Below, in pieces: positions 3,283 through 12,177 of a stretch of DNA of 12,221 bases. This DNA is from Butyrivibrio sp. GTDB taxonomy: Bacteria; Bacillota_A; Clostridia; Lachnospirales; Lachnospiraceae. Positions within the stretch are counted from its first letter, which is position 1; each line of letters begins with the position of its first letter. The stretch is from positions 1-12,221 of the forward strand of contig JAILOW010000201.1 of the NCBI GenBank assembly GCA_024690635.1. Direction: 5' to 3'. Both the position numbers and the translations under genes were made by a program. Below the pieces are notes generated by a model, which had not been told where the DNA came from, did not search any database, and saw nothing but the letters and a program-made list of their open reading frames with translations.

Positions 3283-6200
3283 TCAGTGCATGAAATCTTT
3301 TTCTCTCAGAATTACCATATCATTTTCATCAAAACGCTTATTTACGATTACATCCATCAGATGCCCAACGCTCTTTTTCTCTGCATAGTAAATGGCATCA
3401 TCCACAATGTCTTTTACCTCGGATACCGTTACATCGTGGTCCAGAGTCTGCCTCTCGGAAATTCTGGTGTGAAGCGCCAGAATACCAAGATTGTCGATGG
3501 TGTATTCCTTTTCAAGAGCGTACTGCCTTGCGTATGCCACAAGTGAATCGTCATCCAGAGCCTCAATATCAACTCTTACGTTAAAGCTCTGTTTCAGAGA
3601 AGGATTCTTGTCAAGGAATCTGTCCATGTCCTCTTTGTTATCTTCCATGACGATGACAAGGCCCTTGTTCTCCTGCTGAAGAATCTTAAGTAGCTCGCTC
3701 ACCGTCTCGGATTCAAGATCTGCTGCCCTCTGAATGATCAAAGCTCCGTTTGCAAGCTTGTCAAAGATGCTTGCGGTGCTCTTTTTGTTAAGAGTGTTGG
3801 CCGTGATCTTGGCAACCTTGCCGCTGAAGTTGGAATCGGATGCCTGCATTGCCTTGATAAGGCCCTTTGCAAGATTCACGGTGCCTGCGCCCTCTTCGCC
3901 TGTTACGATGGCATTGCCTGAGAAGGCATCCATGCTAAGGTTGTCGATGGCGTTGATGATCTGTCTTCTTGATTTTTTGTGATGTATGTAAGGTCCAAAG
4001 AGCTCTTTTTCCTCAGGAGTCATGGTGCGGACTCTCTCTTCAAGCTCTCTGTTTCCGATATGCTTTTTGCCGCCATGCTTTTTGCGTGCAGCCTTGGCAT
4101 CGGCGCTGTCAGGTGCTTTTTCAGGCTCCTCAGCCCCGGATTCTTCTTTGGCTTCGCCGGATTTTTTTGTTTCCTCTGCATCTTCGGAATCTGTTTCGTC
4201 TTCTGAAGATTCCTCGTCATCGGATTCTTCTGCTGCGTTTTCTTCCTCAGCAGATTTTTCTGCTGTACCTTCTTCAGGAGCCGCATTCTCAGGCTTCTCA
4301 GCAGCCTCTTCATCGGCAGAAGCTTCTTCAGCTGTTTCCTCAGCTTCAGAAGTCTCCTCTTCCTCAGGAAGGATCTCCTCGCTGACTACATCTGTAGCAG
4401 CCTCTTCTGCAGGTGCAGCCTCGGTCTCGGGCTCTTCATCCTCTTCAGGCAAAAGAGCGTCGGGGTCGTCGTACTCAGGAGCTTCCTCCCCGACTACGCC
4501 GGCTACTGCCTCGTTTATCACATCTTCATTGGTTCTTGACCAGTCGCCTCTTCCTGATGCCTTGTCGTGTCTTTCCTGCTTCATGGCATCTTCTATGGCT
4601 TTTTCTATCTTTTCCTGAAGTCCGGCCTTGGTCTTTTCGTCAAAGTCGGCAAACATGTCGCCTGTTTCCTGGGCAACAAGCTTTTTAACTCTCTCAAGCT
4701 GCTTTTCCTGCTGGGTCTTTTTGAAATCCTCCCAGTTCTGCATATATTCATCGATGCTGATCTGGCCTGTGATCTGTTTTTCAACCATAGGCTCAGGCTC
4801 TACAGCCATACTGATCTGGCCGTCGTACTCCTGAGACAGCATGCTCTCGAAATGATTATGCATCTTGTAATTGGCGTTGGGATGGATTACCGCTCCCGGA
4901 ACCTCATCCTCAAGAGGAATTGCCTGAGGAGTGATCACTTGAGTCACAGGAGCCTGCACAGCTTCCTCTACAGGCTCAGTCTCATTCTCAGTCTCAAGCT
5001 CTTTTTCCGGCTCATTCTCAGTATCAAATTTAGCCTCTCCGAGAATAGGGCCGTTTCCGCCATACTTTATCTCTATACCCATCTTGGGCGAAGTGTTAAA
5101 GAACACTTCCTGCATACCTTCGGGGGCAGGGGCTTCCTCCGGGAGGTCCTCGTCATCTTCGAAGATCTCCTCAGTAATGGGCTGAACGCCCTGCTGAAGT
5201 TCGGGCTGCTGCTCTTCTGCCGCCTCTTCTTCGCCCTCCATGGGCTTGTAATCGTCTCCGATCACCTGTCTGAGGCTCTCTGCAATAGTCTCCTGCAGGT
5301 TCATGGTGTTGAATGCACTTACATCCACAGAAGGCTCTTTTATCTCAGTAATATGAGGATATACGATCTCATCGAGATCTCTGTCGGGCTGCTCTACCGG
5401 CGCAGGTTCCTCTGCCACAGGTGCTGTATCGGTCACGGGTGTCGTATCAGCCACAGGGGCAAACACTGTCGTATCCCCGCCCTCAATAAATCCGGTATCG
5501 TCGGCAGGCTCTTCCTCTACAATAGGACCAAAGCCCTCCTCTCCGGGCACGAATTCTCTGGTTTCGCCAAAATCCTCCTCAGCTTCAGGCTGCAGCTCTC
5601 CGTTGTTGTAGGCTGCAATAACCTCATCGGTGATGGGAGGCATCTCTTTTGTGGGCTGCTTGATCTCGATGGTTCTGGTCTCGTCCTTACCCACCTCATC
5701 TTTTTCCGACACAATAGAAGCATCCACCATGCCGCCATGGTTCTGCTTGTATCTCATGTATCTGTCCTGTTGTTCAGGGGAAAGAGGCTCATGAAGCGCC
5801 TTCAGCTCAAGGGCCTTCATAACATATCTGCCCTCGCCGAACCAGAGGAACATCTCGTCGCATTCCTCTATGCACTCTGTTGTAAGGCCCACGCGGTGAT
5901 AGAGATAAGCAAGCTCGTACGCCCACCTCTCTCTGTAATCGTGTTTTTTGAACTCCTCAAGGACGGCAATGCGCTCCTCAAGGCTGACCTCCTGAGCTTC
6001 GTAGATCTTGTACTGAAGAATATATCGCCCTGTATCTCTGGGAGCGATCCTGACAAATTCCTTGTAATACTCAACTGCCTGCACGAACTCGCCCATCTTT
6101 ATTGCAAGTTCACAGAGAGAATAAACTATGGCACGTCCCGTAGGGTGCCTGTCGTAGGCCATCAAAAGAACATCTCTGCTCTCCTCATAGCGTCTGTTTA

Positions 6201-6354
6201 TTTTATACAGGTCGCTGATGGTACACAACATGGATACGCTCTTTACACGCTTCCAGTCGATAGTGTCCGCGATCCTGACAGCTTCGGCAAATCTGCCTTC
6301 CCCAATCAAAGCCTTTATTTCATCGGCTCGAATTTTGTATTCGACTTTATCCAA
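3283..6354 (-). CDS. Large TPR / acidic linker / degenerate AAA-like protein
   Basis: Not a named protein. Start: the longest frame begins with GTG at 6363, but the ribosome binding sequence AGAGGTGG overlaps that codon and is 5 bases before an in-frame TTG at 6354; I choose the TTG (1023 residues). Residues about 12-102 and 144-172 are helical TPR-like repeats. Residues about 215-620 are a long, low-complexity Glu/Pro-rich stretch, with a conserved-looking motif GQISIDEYM at 530-538. Residues about 624-754 are extremely acidic (Glu/Ala/Asp/Ser), followed by a basic patch (756-768). Residues about 784-1023 resemble a AAA+ ATPase fold: GEEGAGTV at 819-826 sits where a Walker A loop would be but lacks its Lys and Ser/Thr, and GALIIQRA (870-877) replaces the Walker B acids. 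It is therefore probably not an ATPase. No signal peptide or membrane segment. Between rsmA and glgB, 22 bases before glgB. A scaffold or adaptor role is inference. Confidence 0.88.
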
Positions 6355-6395
6355 AATATCCACCTCTTTGGTGCCAAAAATACTATATCTAGTAG

Positions 6396-8279: not shown

Positions 8280-8352
8280 GCACCGCTAGCTCAGTTGGTA
8301 GAGCACCTGACTCTTAATCAGGTTGTCCAGGGTTCGAGACCCTGGCGGTGCA
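8280..8352 (+). tRNA. tRNA-Lys (anticodon CTT)
   Basis: The 73 bases fold as a full cloverleaf: acceptor arms GCACCGC and GCGGTGC, D stem GCTC/GAGC, anticodon stem CCTGA/TCAGG with loop CTCTTAA at 8311-8317 (anticodon CTT at 8313-8315), and T stem CAGGG/CCCTG with loop TTCGAGA. The discriminator base is A at 8352. CCA is not encoded and would be added by the CCA enzyme. It decodes AAG. It stands alone, divergent from tatD. Confidence 0.97.
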
Positions 8353-8357
8353 CGCCG

Positions 8358-8404
8358 AGTACTGTTTTCGTAGGTATATCCTACGGGGATGGTACTTTCT
8401 TTTT
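8358..8404 (+). terminator. Hairpin with T-rich tail after the tRNA
   Basis: AGTAC (8358-8362) pairs with GTACT (8392-8396), enclosing a 6-bp hairpin CGTAGG/CCTACG (8369-8385). The tail is TTCTTTTT. The outer stem is short with unpaired bases between the helices, so termination here is possible but not certain; the hairpin at 8438-8484 could serve instead or in addition. Confidence 0.45.
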
Positions 8405-8556
8405 GCGCGAAAGCAATGAGCTGTGCATAAATAAAAAGGAAACACAATGTGGGAGCTCGCTCACACTAAAGTGTTTCCTTTTTTATTTATATAGGGCGAA
8501 TGCCCGCGAACGAGAAACGGCGTTGCCGTTTCTCTTGCGCAGCTCATTGTCTCTCG
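8405..8556. repeat. Multi-branched inverted-repeat element
   Basis: Outer arms 8414-8427 and 8536-8549 (CAATGAGCTGTGCA with TGCGCAGCTCATTG) pair over 14 positions with one G-T pair, and weaker pairing continues outward to about 8405 and 8556. Inside, three hairpins follow almost without gaps: 8427-8445 with 8471-8490 (about 19 bp, one extra T) holding a smaller hairpin; GGGC-GAAT-GCCC at 8494-8505; and a perfect 10-bp stem with 3-base loop at 8512-8534. No coding frame is convincing. It could be a structured RNA read through from the tRNA promoter, or a small non-coding mobile repeat; the sequence alone does not decide. Confidence 0.75.
8438..8484 (+). terminator. Probable bidirectional terminator inside the element
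   Basis: GGAAACAC (8438-8445) pairs with GTGTTTCC (8471-8478), with an inner imperfect hairpin GTGGGAGC/GCTCACAC, and is followed by six T (8479-8484). The five A before the left arm give a T run on the opposite strand too. It would stop the tRNA transcript before the gene at 8627. Confidence 0.6.
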
Positions 8557-8566
8557 CCCCATCTCA

Positions 8567-8595
8567 TTGCCACCCCTTTCCCCAGATGCTATAAT
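8567..8595 (+). promoter_or_regulatory. Strong sigma-A promoter for the membrane protein gene
   Basis: TTGCCA (8567-8572), exactly 17 bases, then TATAAT (8590-8595), with the extended -10 TG at 8587-8588. The predicted start is near 8602, which rules out the in-frame ATG at 8594 as the translation start and supports the ATG at 8627. Confidence 0.8.
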
Positions 8596-8626
8596 GTCTA
8601 CAAAAGCGACCAAAGGAGTTCCATCG

Positions 8627-8953
8627 ATGCCCGCCACTCATAACGTCATAAAAGGTATGCTGACAGCAAGCGCTCTAATTATTTTCGTGGGACTATCTAT
8701 GCTCGTCTATGGCTATCTTCACAGAGACGGCACCACCGTTCAACAGGCTCACATTCCAGCCGGCATTGCCGTTATCCTGATGGGCGCCCTGATCGGAATA
8801 ACTCCTTTTCTATCTGTTGATGTTCTTTGCGGCGCGCTTGTGGTTGGATTCATCTTTATGGTGGGCATATACCACATTTCCAAAAACATTCAGATCAAAC
8901 GCAGAATGGATGCCGCAAGACAACGACAACGCGAAAACGCTAGGAAAGACTGA
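8627..8953 (+). CDS. Small three-helix membrane protein, unknown function
   Basis: I do not recognise this 108-residue protein. Start: ATG at 8627 has AAAGGAG 8 bases upstream and lies downstream of the predicted transcription start; longer in-frame starts overlap the promoter. Hydrophobic helices are at residues about 11-32, 43-64 and 66-84. The loop between the first two is short and polar (RDGTTVQQAH). The C-terminal 24 residues are strongly basic and charged (KRRMDAARQRQRENARKD), so by the positive-inside rule the tail is probably cytoplasmic. No conserved catalytic motif is visible. It has its own promoter and terminator, so it is a one-gene unit. Its last 14 bases overlap the 3' end of the convergent metallopeptidase gene. 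Confidence 0.8.
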   Translation: MPATHNVIKGMLTASALIIFVGLSMLVYGYLHRDGTTVQQAHIPAGIAVILMGALIGITPFLSVDVLCGALVVGFIFMVGIYHISKNIQIKRRMDAARQRQRENARKD

Positions 8954-9742: not shown

Positions 9743-10543
9743 TTGTACAATGAAAAACTAAATTATGAGAATGCCACCGGCCCCATCGAGTACGGCATGA
9801 CGGTAGACTACATGTTCCGCGTGGTACTTCAAAAGAGTAAGCCTGCGCTTAAGGGCCTGGTCATGAGCATCCTTCGTCTTCAGGAGGAAGAGATTGATGA
9901 TGTCGTCGTCCTCAATCCCATCAATCCGGGAGAACACATCTCGGATAAAGAGATCCGAATGGATGTAAGAGTACTGTTAAACGATGACACAAAACTAGAT
10001 CTTGAGATGCAGGTTAAGAACAACAAGGACTGGCCGGAAAGATCGGTAGTCTATCTCTGCAGGGAATTTGATTCACTGTCTGTGGGAGAAGATTATGAAC
10101 AAGTCAAAAGCATTTATCAGATAGGATTTCTTGATTTTAATCTCTTCGATGATCATCCGGAATTCTGCGGAAGATATCAGCTAAGGAACGAAAAAGACGG
10201 CTATCTCTACTCTAGTAAGCTAAATCTCTGCGTGGTACAATTAAATCACACAGAACTGGCAACAGATGAAGACAGAGCCTATGGTATCGATAAATGGGCC
10301 AAGGTCTTTAAAGCATCTACATGGGAGGAACTGAAGATGGTAGCACAGAATAACGAATTCATGTCTGCAACTGCTGAATCTATATTTCTTGCCAATCAGG
10401 ACTACAATGTCCGTAAAGTCATCAGAGAACGCCAGGAACATGAGATGTATGTTGAACGATTGAAGGAGAAGGTAGATACACTCGAAGATGAGAACGCCTC
10501 TCTCCGCAAACTCCTGGAAGAGCACGGTATTAAGGCACCGTAA
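9743..10543 (+). CDS. Rpn-family PD-(D/E)XK nuclease / putative transposase
   Basis: A 266-residue protein of the Rpn/PDDEXK_2 family, in which E. coli members (RpnA-E) are DNA endonucleases that promote RecA-independent recombination. The start is TTG at 9743, 7 bases after a perfect AAGGAGGT; the nearby ATG at 9750 is out of frame and stops at once. The N-terminus GPIEYGMTVDYMFRVVLQ is the usual entry to the domain. Candidate metal-site residues are D74 in RMDVRV and E88/Q90 in LDLEMQV, the D...E-x-Q/K pattern of the fold. Residues about 184-215 (KWAKVFKASTWEELKM onward) are the helical second domain. Residues about 226-261 form a charged coiled coil. An internal ribosome binding site and in-frame ATG at 10337 could produce a short C-terminal form. 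The IS starts about 65 bases downstream. Confidence 0.92.
   Translation: MYNEKLNYENATGPIEYGMTVDYMFRVVLQKSKPALKGLVMSILRLQEEEIDDVVVLNPINPGEHISDKEIRMDVRVLLNDDTKLDLEMQVKNNKDWPERSVVYLCREFDSLSVGEDYEQVKSIYQIGFLDFNLFDDHPEFCGRYQLRNEKDGYLYSSKLNLCVVQLNHTELATDEDRAYGIDKWAKVFKASTWEELKMVAQNNEFMSATAESIFLANQDYNVRKVIRERQEHEMYVERLKEKVDTLEDENASLRKLLEEHGIKAP
10337..10543 (+). CDS. Possible internal in-frame short Rpn product
   Basis: ATG at 10337 (Met199 of the Rpn protein) is in frame and has GGAGGAA at 10324-10330, about 6 bases upstream, which is a proper ribosome binding geometry. Translation would give 68 residues: the end of the helical domain plus the coiled coil, without the nuclease core. In E. coli, short C-terminal Rpn forms from internal starts have been reported to inhibit the full-length nuclease. 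Caution: GGGAGGAA is also simply the codons for Trp-Glu-Glu in a conserved motif. Confidence 0.4.
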   Translation: MVAQNNEFMSATAESIFLANQDYNVRKVIRERQEHEMYVERLKEKVDTLEDENASLRKLLEEHGIKAP

Positions 10544-10609: not shown

Positions 10610-10633
10610 GAGGGTGCGGACGTTTTCTTGGAC
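10610..10633 (+). repeat. Left terminal inverted repeat of the IS
   Basis: Read inward, GAGGGTGCGGAC, six unmatched bases, then TTGGAC. The first 12 and last 6 bases match the right repeat exactly. Confidence 0.88.
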
Positions 10634-10658
10634 TAAGCAATTAATCCAAGAAAACGTC
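10619..10658. repeat. Subterminal 14-bp hairpin over the transposase stop codon
   Basis: GACGTTTTCTTGGA (10619-10632) and TCCAAGAAAACGTC (10645-10658) are perfectly complementary with a 12-base loop that contains the transposase stop codon (10633-10635). The outer arm is the inner half of the terminal repeat. No T run follows on either strand, so it is not a classical terminator. Confidence 0.75.
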
Positions 10659-12177
10659 TATACTCAATTGGGCTCATGGCTCCAAGTGACATTTTTATTC
10701 TACTCGTTGAATACCAACGTATGTAGTTATCTAATATATCAATAAATTCATCGATAGATGTATATGTCCATGAATGATTGTAAAACATTTCATTCTTAAG
10801 GCGACCAAAGAATGCTTCACAAGCTGCATTGTCAGGAGAACAACCTTTTTTAGACATTGATCGAGTGAGCCCCGCATTCTCCATCCGGTCAATCCAACCC
10901 GGCCATCTGTAATGAGCTCCGCGATCTGTGTGAATGATTGGATGAACACCTTCAGGCATGTTTTCAATAGCTATATCAAGCATTGTATTTACAAGCTCTG
11001 CATTCGGCGCTGTTCCAATAGTCCATGCAACTGGCAGGCCATCAAAGCAATCAATAATTGGTGATAAATATACTTTTCCGGCAGGGATGTGAAACTCAGT
11101 AATATCTGTTAGCCATTTTTCATTAGGTGCTGAAGCTCTGAAATTACGATTGATAATGTTAGGGACAGCCTCTGAGATTTCACCTTGATATGAACTGTAT
11201 TTTCTTATTCTTACCTTTTTGATAGTAAGCCTTTCTTCCCTCATTAGTCTTCGAATTACTTTTTCGGAAACAGTTATAGTTCTTCTCTTTAATACTGCAT
11301 GAACACGACGGTATCCATATGTTTCTCCAGATTCAGAAAAAATACTAGTTATAAGTTCTCTTATAACAGCATATTTTTCAGGCTTTTTTTGTATGCTATG
11401 TTGATAAAAATAACTACTTTTAGAGATATTCATAAGTTCTAAAAGTTCTTTTAGGCAATAATCATTTCTGAGGGCATCAATTATTATTGCCTTTTCGCAA
11501 TTTGGTAATGTTTGTAATTTGATGCCCTTTGCTTTTTTTATTAGCTCAGTTGCCTTTTCGAGAGCGTCTTTTTCAAGCTGTAATCTATGAACCTGTTGTT
11601 TCAATAGCATTGCTTGATGTTCAAGATCGGATACTTGAGTGGATAAATCTTCGTAAGTAGAAAGCTTGGTGTCCATTTTGAAACGTTCTCCCATTGGAAT
11701 TAGTTGGTTTTTCCACTTATAGAGAGAACTAGCACTTACACCTATATCTTGAGCAACTTCCAAGGCTGTTCCTTCTCTGCAAGTAAGTCGTATTGAGGCA
11801 ACCACCTTATCATTATACGAATATTTTCTAAGAGTTGAACCCTTTAGTGCTGATTGGGCTCTGGTTGGAATATGCTCATCAAGCCATTTTGTTAAAACAC
11901 TATGGCTTGGATAGCCTAGTTCTCTACAAGTAAAGGCTACATTCATACCATTATTTAACCAATGGTCAACTGCTTTTTTTATTTGTTCATTAGAGAATTT
12001 TGGTACCCTGCTTTTGTATTGTGGTTCATTAAGCTTTCCATTATCTTCAAACTCTCTTATCCATTGTCTTAGTGTGTTACGAGATCCTGGATAACCAAGT
12101 AGTCTGATTGTTTTTCTGTGACTTCTGAGTTTTAGAAAGGTATCGATAGCCATCTGTTTCTGGTCTAGTGTGTACAT
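10633..12177 (-). CDS. IS3-family transposase, single fused ORF
   Basis: A 514-residue DDE transposase. Three helix-turn-helix-like units (about 21-40, 79-99 and 137-159) and a leucine-zipper helix (178-215) form the OrfA-like half. An HTH_21-like segment (about 233-285) leads to the integrase core, with D358 (WLTDITEF), D418 (IIHTDRGAHY) and E454 (NAACEAFFGRLKNE). D418 and E454 are separated by 35 residues, the IS3 D(35)E spacing. The ATG at 12177 has AAGGAG 8 bases upstream. Most IS3 elements split this protein into two frames joined by -1 frameshifting at an A-run; here both halves are in one frame through an A7 run (11533-11539). All catalytic residues are present, so it may be active. 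Confidence 0.96.
   Translation of the reverse strand: MYTLDQKQMAIDTFLKLRSHRKTIRLLGYPGSRNTLRQWIREFEDNGKLNEPQYKSRVPKFSNEQIKKAVDHWLNNGMNVAFTCRELGYPSHSVLTKWLDEHIPTRAQSALKGSTLRKYSYNDKVVASIRLTCREGTALEVAQDIGVSASSLYKWKNQLIPMGERFKMDTKLSTYEDLSTQVSDLEHQAMLLKQQVHRLQLEKDALEKATELIKKAKGIKLQTLPNCEKAIIIDALRNDYCLKELLELMNISKSSYFYQHSIQKKPEKYAVIRELITSIFSESGETYGYRRVHAVLKRRTITVSEKVIRRLMREERLTIKKVRIRKYSSYQGEISEAVPNIINRNFRASAPNEKWLTDITEFHIPAGKVYLSPIIDCFDGLPVAWTIGTAPNAELVNTMLDIAIENMPEGVHPIIHTDRGAHYRWPGWIDRMENAGLTRSMSKKGCSPDNAACEAFFGRLKNEMFYNHSWTYTSIDEFIDILDNYIRWYSTSRIKMSLGAMSPIEYRRFLGLIA
11533..11539 (-). other. A7 slippery run at the OrfA/OrfB-like junction
   Basis: On the coding strand seven A followed by G (codons ATA AAA AAA GCA, residues 213-216) sit just where IS150-type elements carry their A6G frameshift site. 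Frame 0 stays open; slippage by one base either way meets a stop within about 20 codons, giving an OrfA-like protein of roughly 235 residues. Confidence 0.6.

What the first reader, a model, noticed from the sequence alone, without database searches (positions are those of the whole stretch)
8405..8556. Compact multi-branch nucleic-acid structure after tRNA-Lys
An outer 14-bp stem closes three successive hairpins (about 19 bp with bulge, 4 bp, 10 bp), and few bases between 8414 and 8549 remain unpaired. This is far more order than a terminator needs. It may be a new structured RNA co-transcribed with the tRNA, or a small non-coding mobile repeat. I know of no named family that fits.
Basis: partly seen in the sequence, partly recalled or inferred. 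Interest (0 to 1): 0.75.

Follow-up and report, generated by a model that had tools for sequence, protein, structure and literature searches.

The report
Mobile structured RNA of gut bacteria
The folded stretch behind this tRNA gene is one copy of an apparently undescribed, scattered element of about 150 bases found widely in one large family of gut and rumen bacteria; its fold rather than its sequence is kept by evolution, which suggests that it acts on the transcripts whose ends it sits beside.

Summary
The structure is real: window 8405-8556 folds at -74 kcal/mol, z -9.5, 0 of 200 shuffles as good; an 18-pair outer stem closes hairpins of 19, 4 and 10 pairs. A terminator-like hairpin separates it from tRNA-Lys.

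It belongs to a dispersed family. A covariance model finds it in 77 of 79 Butyrivibrio genomes, 168 of 299 Lachnospiraceae and 5 of 398 of the phylum, those 5 also being in the family sample. Nine genomes scored deeply hold 2-17 copies. No Rfam 15 family fits.

46 of 48 pairs show two-sided compensatory change. G-U outnumbers A-C 116 to 18 in the long hairpin, so one strand's fold, most simply RNA, is selected. Copies at the same site in related genomes keep pairing: 51 of 61 changed pairs.

Most copies start beside a stop codon, tRNA end, terminator T-run or -10 box, usually in sense; 23 of 109 have none recognised. Empty sites in relatives show insertion.

Best reading: a non-autonomous mobile RNA element acting in cis at transcript ends. 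Function is inferred; the enzyme is unknown.

The parts
8280..8353 (+). tRNA-Lys(CTT), the gene behind which the element lies
   Evidence: ARAGORN, Rfam tRNA 68.8 bits
8357..8404 (+). 18-pair hairpin (8357-8397) followed by a T-run; probable intrinsic terminator of the tRNA gene, separate from the element
   Evidence: fold; a hairpin with a T-run also follows the tRNA in the relatives shown
8405..8556 (+). the structured mobile element; the model match itself covers 8416-8546
   Evidence: fold z -9.46; R1 model match 92.3 bits, but the window copy was part of the model
8408..8426 (+). outer stem, 5' arm (pairs with 8537-8556)
8427..8490 (+). H1, the long hairpin; hypervariable in sequence between copies but almost perfectly paired
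8494..8505 (+). H2, short hairpin GGGC-GAAT-GCCC; the most sequence-conserved part of the family
8512..8534 (+). H3, third hairpin; most other copies have CGAG/CGAG-like bases at its foot, the window copy has Watson-Crick pairs instead
8537..8556 (+). outer stem, 3' arm

Best explanation
Shown: the element is one copy of a Lachnospiraceae family of dispersed elements of about 150 nt whose + strand folds into an outer stem enclosing a long hypervariable hairpin (H1), a short conserved hairpin (H2) and a third hairpin (H3). It has inserted at new sites, preferentially beside transcript boundaries and mostly in sense, and copies that sit at the same site in related genomes keep their pairing in a strand-specific way, which is most simply selection on RNA. 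Inferred: it is a non-autonomous mobile element moved by an unidentified enzyme, and the resident RNA works in cis as a transcript-end structure, shielding a 5' end (promoter-proximal copies) or a 3' end (copies after stop codons and tRNAs) from exonucleases, or offering the long perfect duplex H1 to an RNase III-like activity; that would explain why pairing but not sequence is kept. My split: undescribed dispersed family with strand-specific structural selection 0.93; insertion targeted to transcript boundaries rather than only filtered by selection 0.6; cis end-protection or processing as its role 0.35.
For: Covariation: 25 of 53 pairs with two-sided change on 7 sequences, 0 of 500 shuffles; 46 of 48 pairs on 96 distinct copies, 94.7% of cells paired. 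Strand: G-U 116 against A-C 18 in H1 of 107 distinct copies, 59 copies leaning to G-U and 9 to A-C; 21 against 3 in the 18 copies found by a regular expression without any model, 10 copies to 0; 32 against 7 in 39 copies used neither for the model nor in the first count, 19 to 5. In-place selection: 18 same-site pairs, 945 base pairs, 61 changed: 27 two-sided still paired (3.8 expected), 24 one-sided still paired, 6 one-sided broken, 4 two-sided broken. Spread: 77 of 79 genus, 168 of 299 family. Mobility: two empty sites in a sister species, element absent at two sites in four relatives, 156 identical nt with different flanks. Placement: 14 of 40 copies from 40 genomes lie -4 to +14 nt from a same-strand stop against 5.5% of random intergenic position-orientations; 12 of 14 G375 copies begin 12-13 nt behind TATAAT.
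Against: No RNA data. Copies behind terminators, including the window's, would be transcribed mainly by readthrough. 8 of 103 copies instead have their right end within 15 nt of the stop of an opposite-strand gene, against 31 of 103 in sense. 23 of 109 copies have no recognised feature at their left end. Terminators are not enriched behind the element (3 sense against 5 antisense of 31; 5 against 3 of 40), so a place inside 3' UTRs is not shown. Most copies were collected with a model of the + strand, which could favour G-U, though the model-free subset agrees. G-T pairs also exist in single-stranded DNA. The same-site pairs overlap in part and are not independent.
Confidence: 0.6

Rival explanations
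1. A purely selfish MITE-, REP- or IS200/IS605-like DNA repeat: the hairpins are recognised as single-stranded DNA by a transposase (for example Y1/RAYT), and nothing happens at the RNA level.
For: Dispersed copies, inverted ends, 3' tandem part-units as in repeat arrays; at the L157 site a clean join behind TATAAT without evident target duplication; single-stranded DNA also tolerates G-T pairs.
Against: Selection on pairing at fixed sites. Y1_Tnp (PF01797) occurs in 9 of 12 element-bearing and 7 of 12 genomes without a detected element, and is not found in element-bearing G228, G291 and G305 (assemblies may be incomplete).
Confidence: 0.22
2. A trans-acting small RNA gene family: each copy is expressed and acts elsewhere.
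For: In G375 12 of 14 copies begin 12-13 nt behind TATAAT.
Against: At the two such sites examined, relatives lacking the element have TATAAT or TATGAT there, so the -10 box is the host's; H1 shows no conserved sequence that could address common targets; many copies abut genes and tRNAs.
Confidence: 0.1
3. A complex intrinsic or bidirectional transcription terminator.
For: H1 of the window copy and many Butyrivibrio copies has A-rich 5' and T-rich 3' arms.
Against: At the tRNA-Lys site the tRNA already has a terminator-like hairpin; one copy lies between what I read as fabG and fabF, many G375 copies lie between a -10 box and the next gene, and many H1 stems lack a T-run (e.g. L006, L100, L136, L137, L160).
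Confidence: 0.06
4. A retron-like or other reverse-transcribed RNA spread by a reverse transcriptase in trans.
For: Outer stem, short hairpins and one long variable hairpin resemble retron RNA, best on the reverse strand (resemblance recalled, not tested).
Against: The G-U bias points to the other strand; no recurring partner gene noticed among the immediate neighbours inspected; no search for reverse transcriptases was run.
Confidence: 0.04

Closest known systems
bcr1 (and bcr2-bcr18) intergenic repeats of the Bacillus cereus group (PMC3446304, passages read; primary bcr1 paper not held)
   Same: Short (bcr1 147-167 bp in the table of PMC2267715), dispersed, MITE-like, often inside UTRs or operons; some bcr families have conserved secondary structure
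   Different: Other bacterial group; no sequence comparison was made; target duplication TTTAT of bcr1 (recalled) not seen here; here the fold is a three-hairpin junction with a hypervariable H1
REP/BIME repeats with RAYT (Y1) transposases (PMC2817692 and PMC3733652, search listings only)
   Same: Extragenic palindromic repeats discussed in relation to mRNA stability
   Different: REPs are 20-40 bp and usually over 100 copies per genome; here about 150 nt and 2-17 copies detected; Y1 genes do not track the element
Enterobacterial ERIC/IRU (127 bp) and YPAL/RU-2 (168 bp) small mobile sequences (PMC2229807, abstract and outline; sizes from the PMC2759123 listing)
   Same: Size class, intergenic, small mobile sequences with transcribed RNA motifs
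   Different: Different bacteria and, as far as recalled, a different fold; no sequence comparison was made
Mobile/repeat sequence candidates such as MRSC-65-2 (PMC11109978, passages)
   Same: Multicopy motif supported by covariation and judged likely mobile
   Different: MRSC-65-2 is a single long stem found in diverse phyla; this one is multi-branched and detected only in one family; the main text does not contain the words Butyrivibrio, Lachno-, Roseburia or Clostridium (supplements not seen)

Membership tests
Any Rfam 15 family | match at or above the family's gathering score | tested here: not met
   window: only tRNA; window 8340-8640 and five other element-bearing loci at loose thresholds gave no match above a gathering score
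REP/RAYT repeats | 20-40 bp palindromes in high copy number | tested here: not met
   about 150 nt, 2-17 copies detected per deeply scored genome
REP/RAYT repeats | dependence on a Y1 (RAYT) transposase | tested here: inconclusive
   Y1_Tnp in 9 of 12 element genomes and 7 of 12 others; not found in three element-bearing genomes, whose assemblies may be incomplete
MITE-like small mobile repeats (the kind bcr1 belongs to) | dispersed copies with insertions shown against empty sites | tested here: met
MITE-like small mobile repeats (the kind bcr1 belongs to) | terminal inverted repeats | tested here: met
   outer stems in the folds; e.g. 16 nt in L014 (read)
MITE-like small mobile repeats (the kind bcr1 belongs to) | target-site duplication | tested here: inconclusive
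   L182 site shows a possible ATGTAA repeat, L178 is ambiguous, L157 shows none
MITE-like small mobile repeats (the kind bcr1 belongs to) | full-length relative that encodes the transposase | tested here: inconclusive
   one closely spaced pair examined held ribosomal protein genes, not a transposase; no systematic search
Intrinsic terminator | GC-rich hairpin followed by a T-run | tested here: not met
   met by some copies including the window's H1, but not a family feature
Retron RNA | reverse transcriptase encoded beside or acting on the RNA | not tested
   no reverse-transcriptase search was run

The most novel reading that the evidence does not exclude
A mobile RNA element whose insertion is coupled to transcription: it enters DNA that RNA polymerase holds open (just behind the -10 box, terminator T-runs, gene and tRNA ends), so oriented that it becomes the 5' or 3' end of a transcript. 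There its fold is kept by selection as a cap on the transcript end, while the long hairpin drifts freely in sequence as long as it pairs.
Probability: 0.22. Interest if true: 0.88.

Novelty: new variant of a known kind. Interest (0 to 1): 0.72.

Why it matters
Lachnospiraceae are major gut and rumen bacteria, and at least 168 of 299 sampled genomes of the family carry this element, often beside core genes that I read as EF-Tu, GroEL, ribosomal proteins S9 and L17, LeuRS, FabG/FabF and tRNAs, with no name found for it. If it controls transcript ends, it is a layer of gene expression that annotation misses, spread at least partly by mobility. The constant 12-13 nt spacing behind host -10 boxes makes transcription-coupled insertion directly testable, and the hypervariable but paired hairpin is a clean natural test of what a bacterial nuclease or binding protein reads in an RNA.

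Tried and rejected
Own-genome copy count: no genome held for the window, so counts come from relatives. Blastn of the window copy in one relative found nothing, as expected for a hypervariable sequence; a covariance model replaced it. Rfam at loose thresholds: no meaningful family. Terminator reading set aside. Y1/RAYT association not found. Autonomous version: two copies 1.3 kb apart in G053 flank what I read as rplJ-rplL, not a transposase; only that pair was examined closely. Phage or plasmid carriage: no match, by one exact pattern and by blastn with the window copy only. Terminators behind the element: no enrichment. A promoter carried by the element: rejected for the two G375 sites examined, because four relatives lacking the element have TATAAT (one site) or TATGAT (other site) there; at the first site two of the four, G773 and G781, carry a different short insertion with a second TATAAT. 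Literature: searches listed no paper on such an element in this family; that covers only the open-licence PMC library, by listing. Of the papers cited I saw passages (PMC11109978, PMC8632094, PMC3446304, PMC2267715), abstract and outline (PMC2229807) or listings.

Full report
WHAT IS THERE. The window comes from a Butyrivibrio-like member of Lachnospiraceae (TatD best match 77%, Butyrivibrio sp. INlla18). Behind tRNA-Lys(CTT) at 8280-8353 lies an 18-pair hairpin, 8357-8397, with a T-run, and directly after it the reported structure. RNA folding of 8405-8556 gives -74.0 kcal/mol, z -9.46, 0 of 200 shuffles as good. The helices are an outer stem of 18 pairs, H1 with 19 pairs plus a 6-pair cap, H2 with 4 pairs and H3 with 10 pairs.

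THE SAME SITE IN RELATIVES. Of 21 Butyrivibrio TatD loci (L001-L021), 20 hold the tRNA-Lys (L011 shows none). In L002 and L017 the contig ends too soon, leaving 18 that can be judged. 14 of these 18 carry the element in the same place and direction, L015 carries one only in the opposite direction, and L003, L016 and L019 lack a full copy (L019 has what looks like a remnant). Two subtypes with different H2/H3 surroundings occupy the same site in different species, and the window is a third. On MAFFT alignments, 28 of 48 pairs (11 sequences: subtype A, the window and L075) and 25 of 53 pairs (subtype B, 7 sequences) show two-sided change that keeps the pair. For subtype B, 0 of 500 shuffles reach the observed covariation and slid controls collapse.

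THE FAMILY. A covariance model built from the 11-sequence alignment (R1) matches 9 of 9 genomes with 2-17 matches each at E 0.001, 77 of 79 genomes of the genus and 168 of 299 of the family at E 1e-4, with only 10 candidates per genome scored. A sample of 398 genomes of the phylum, 8 candidates scored per genome, gave 5; all 5 also appear in the family sample, so no genome outside the family is known to match. Eight further genomes hold 4-14 matches at E 1e-6. On 96 distinct aligned copies 94.7% of cells pair and 46 of 48 pairs change on both sides (that alignment is fitted to the model). No Rfam 15 family fits. One exact pattern against viral contigs and blastn of the window copy against plasmids and phages found nothing.

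WHICH STRAND, AND IS IT SELECTED? In a palindrome kept as double-stranded DNA, G-U and A-C mismatches should be equally common. With a scoring that treats both alike, H1 stems of 107 distinct copies hold 116 G-U against 18 A-C; 59 copies lean to G-U and 9 to A-C. Most copies were found with a model of the + strand, which might favour G-U. The 18 copies first found by a plain regular expression give 21 against 3 (10 copies to 0), and 39 copies from other genomes, none used in the model or in the first count, give 32 against 7 (19 copies to 5) (with the one overlapping copy 33 against 8). So the strand named + here is the one that folds. For selection in place I compared 18 pairs of copies at the same site in related genomes (some copies are used twice). 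Of 945 base pairs 61 changed: 27 on both sides and still paired (3.8 expected if sides were independent), 24 on one side and still paired, 6 on one side and broken, 4 on both sides and broken; 25 pairs with gaps were set aside. Template-switch repair of palindromes could make two-sided changes without selection, but not the excess of wobble over broken one-sided changes (inference). Resident copies are therefore maintained as a folded single strand, most simply RNA.

WHERE IT SITS. An automatic sort of 109 copies gave 36 next to a same-strand stop codon, 31 behind a terminator (23 of them with a tRNA-Lys detected), 8 behind a tRNA, 11 behind a -10 box only, and 23 with nothing recognised; a few 'stop' calls rest on short, doubtful frames. 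In the one-per-genome set 14 of 40 lie -4 to +14 nt from a same-strand stop against 5.5% of random intergenic position-orientation combinations. Counting by neighbouring frames, 31 of 103 copies have their left end within 15 nt of a same-strand stop, and 8 of 103 have their right end within 15 nt of an opposite-strand stop, so sense placement is a preference, not a rule. In several copies the element's own TGA appears to serve as the stop codon. Neighbouring genes, as I read their translations, include S9, L17, EF-Tu, GroEL, LeuRS, GMP synthase, rubrerythrin, FabG and AccC. At rubrerythrin, four genomes carry copies three nt behind the stop with unrelated H1 but, in three of them, a similar remainder: H1 seems to turn over fast while the rest stays. 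Terminators are not enriched behind the element.

INSERTION. The L182 copy lies between what I read as fabG and fabF. In G375, 12 of 14 copies start 12-13 nt after TATAAT; three of the 40 one-per-genome copies show the same 13-nt spacing. Two G375 sites were examined in relatives: four relatives lack the element at each, and all four have TATAAT at one site and TATGAT at the other, so the -10 box is the host's and the element would begin close to the transcript start; at the first site two of the four carry another short insertion. At the L157 site the join is clean, with no evident target duplication; the L182 site shows a possible ATGTAA repeat. G157 has two copies identical over 156 nt with different flanks.

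HOW IT MAY WORK. Shown: past mobility, preferred sense placement at transcript boundaries, strand-specific structural selection. Inferred: the RNA acts in cis on the end it occupies, as a barrier to exonucleases or as a duplex for an RNase III-like enzyme; that would explain why H1 pairs almost perfectly with no conserved sequence. Copies behind terminators, the window's among them, fit less well, since they would be transcribed mainly by readthrough; two of them (L137, L160) follow what look like T-box leader terminators and would be made only on antitermination (my reading). Bases CGAG/CGAG around H3 (83 of 109 copies by a loose pattern without a control) would form tandem sheared G-A pairs in RNA (recalled knowledge), which suggests a protein contact; the window copy has Watson-Crick pairs instead. 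The enzyme is unknown; Y1 transposases do not track the element.

COMPARISON. It resembles the transcribed MITE-like repeats of other bacteria (bcr1, ERIC/IRU, REP), and meets the general features of that kind (dispersed, inverted ends, empty sites), but size, copy number or partner gene keep it out of REP, and no membership in any named family is claimed. Searches of the held library listed no description; papers were seen as listings, abstract, outline or passages only.

Noticed in passing
L010, L012, L013, L014, L139, L146, L154, L160, L164, L171 (3' of the element): Many copies are followed by one or more 3' part-units (H2-H3-outer 3' arm) that lack the outer 5' arm and H1; in L010, L012, L013 and L014 the part-unit is of a different subtype from the full copy before it.
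   Followed up: partly
window 8590-8608: TATAATGTCTACAAAAGC, presumably the promoter of the small frame 8627-8953, resembles the left end of promoter-type copies in other genomes (e.g. TATAATGTCCGCAAAAGC in L307); it may be a remnant of another copy or chance.
   Followed up: no
L003:5436-5748: Butyrivibrio sp. YAB3001 has two tandem tRNA-Lys(CTT) genes at this locus and no full element.
   Followed up: no
L277 (G053:C93:36500-40000): Two copies bracket what I read as the rplJ-rplL genes, one before the first start codon and one directly behind the last stop codon.
   Followed up: partly
G291:C24:10449-10846 (L135): Three full copies in tandem, largely identical to one another.
   Followed up: no
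window 3283-6363 (-): A 1026-residue frame with a long acidic, Glu/Ala-rich middle lies beside rsmA (ksgA, my reading); no family search was run.
   Followed up: no
window 9743-10543 (+) and 10633-12177 (-): Frames that look like a PD-(D/E)XK/Rpn-type protein and an IS3-type transposase (my reading); no link to the element was seen or tested.
   Followed up: no
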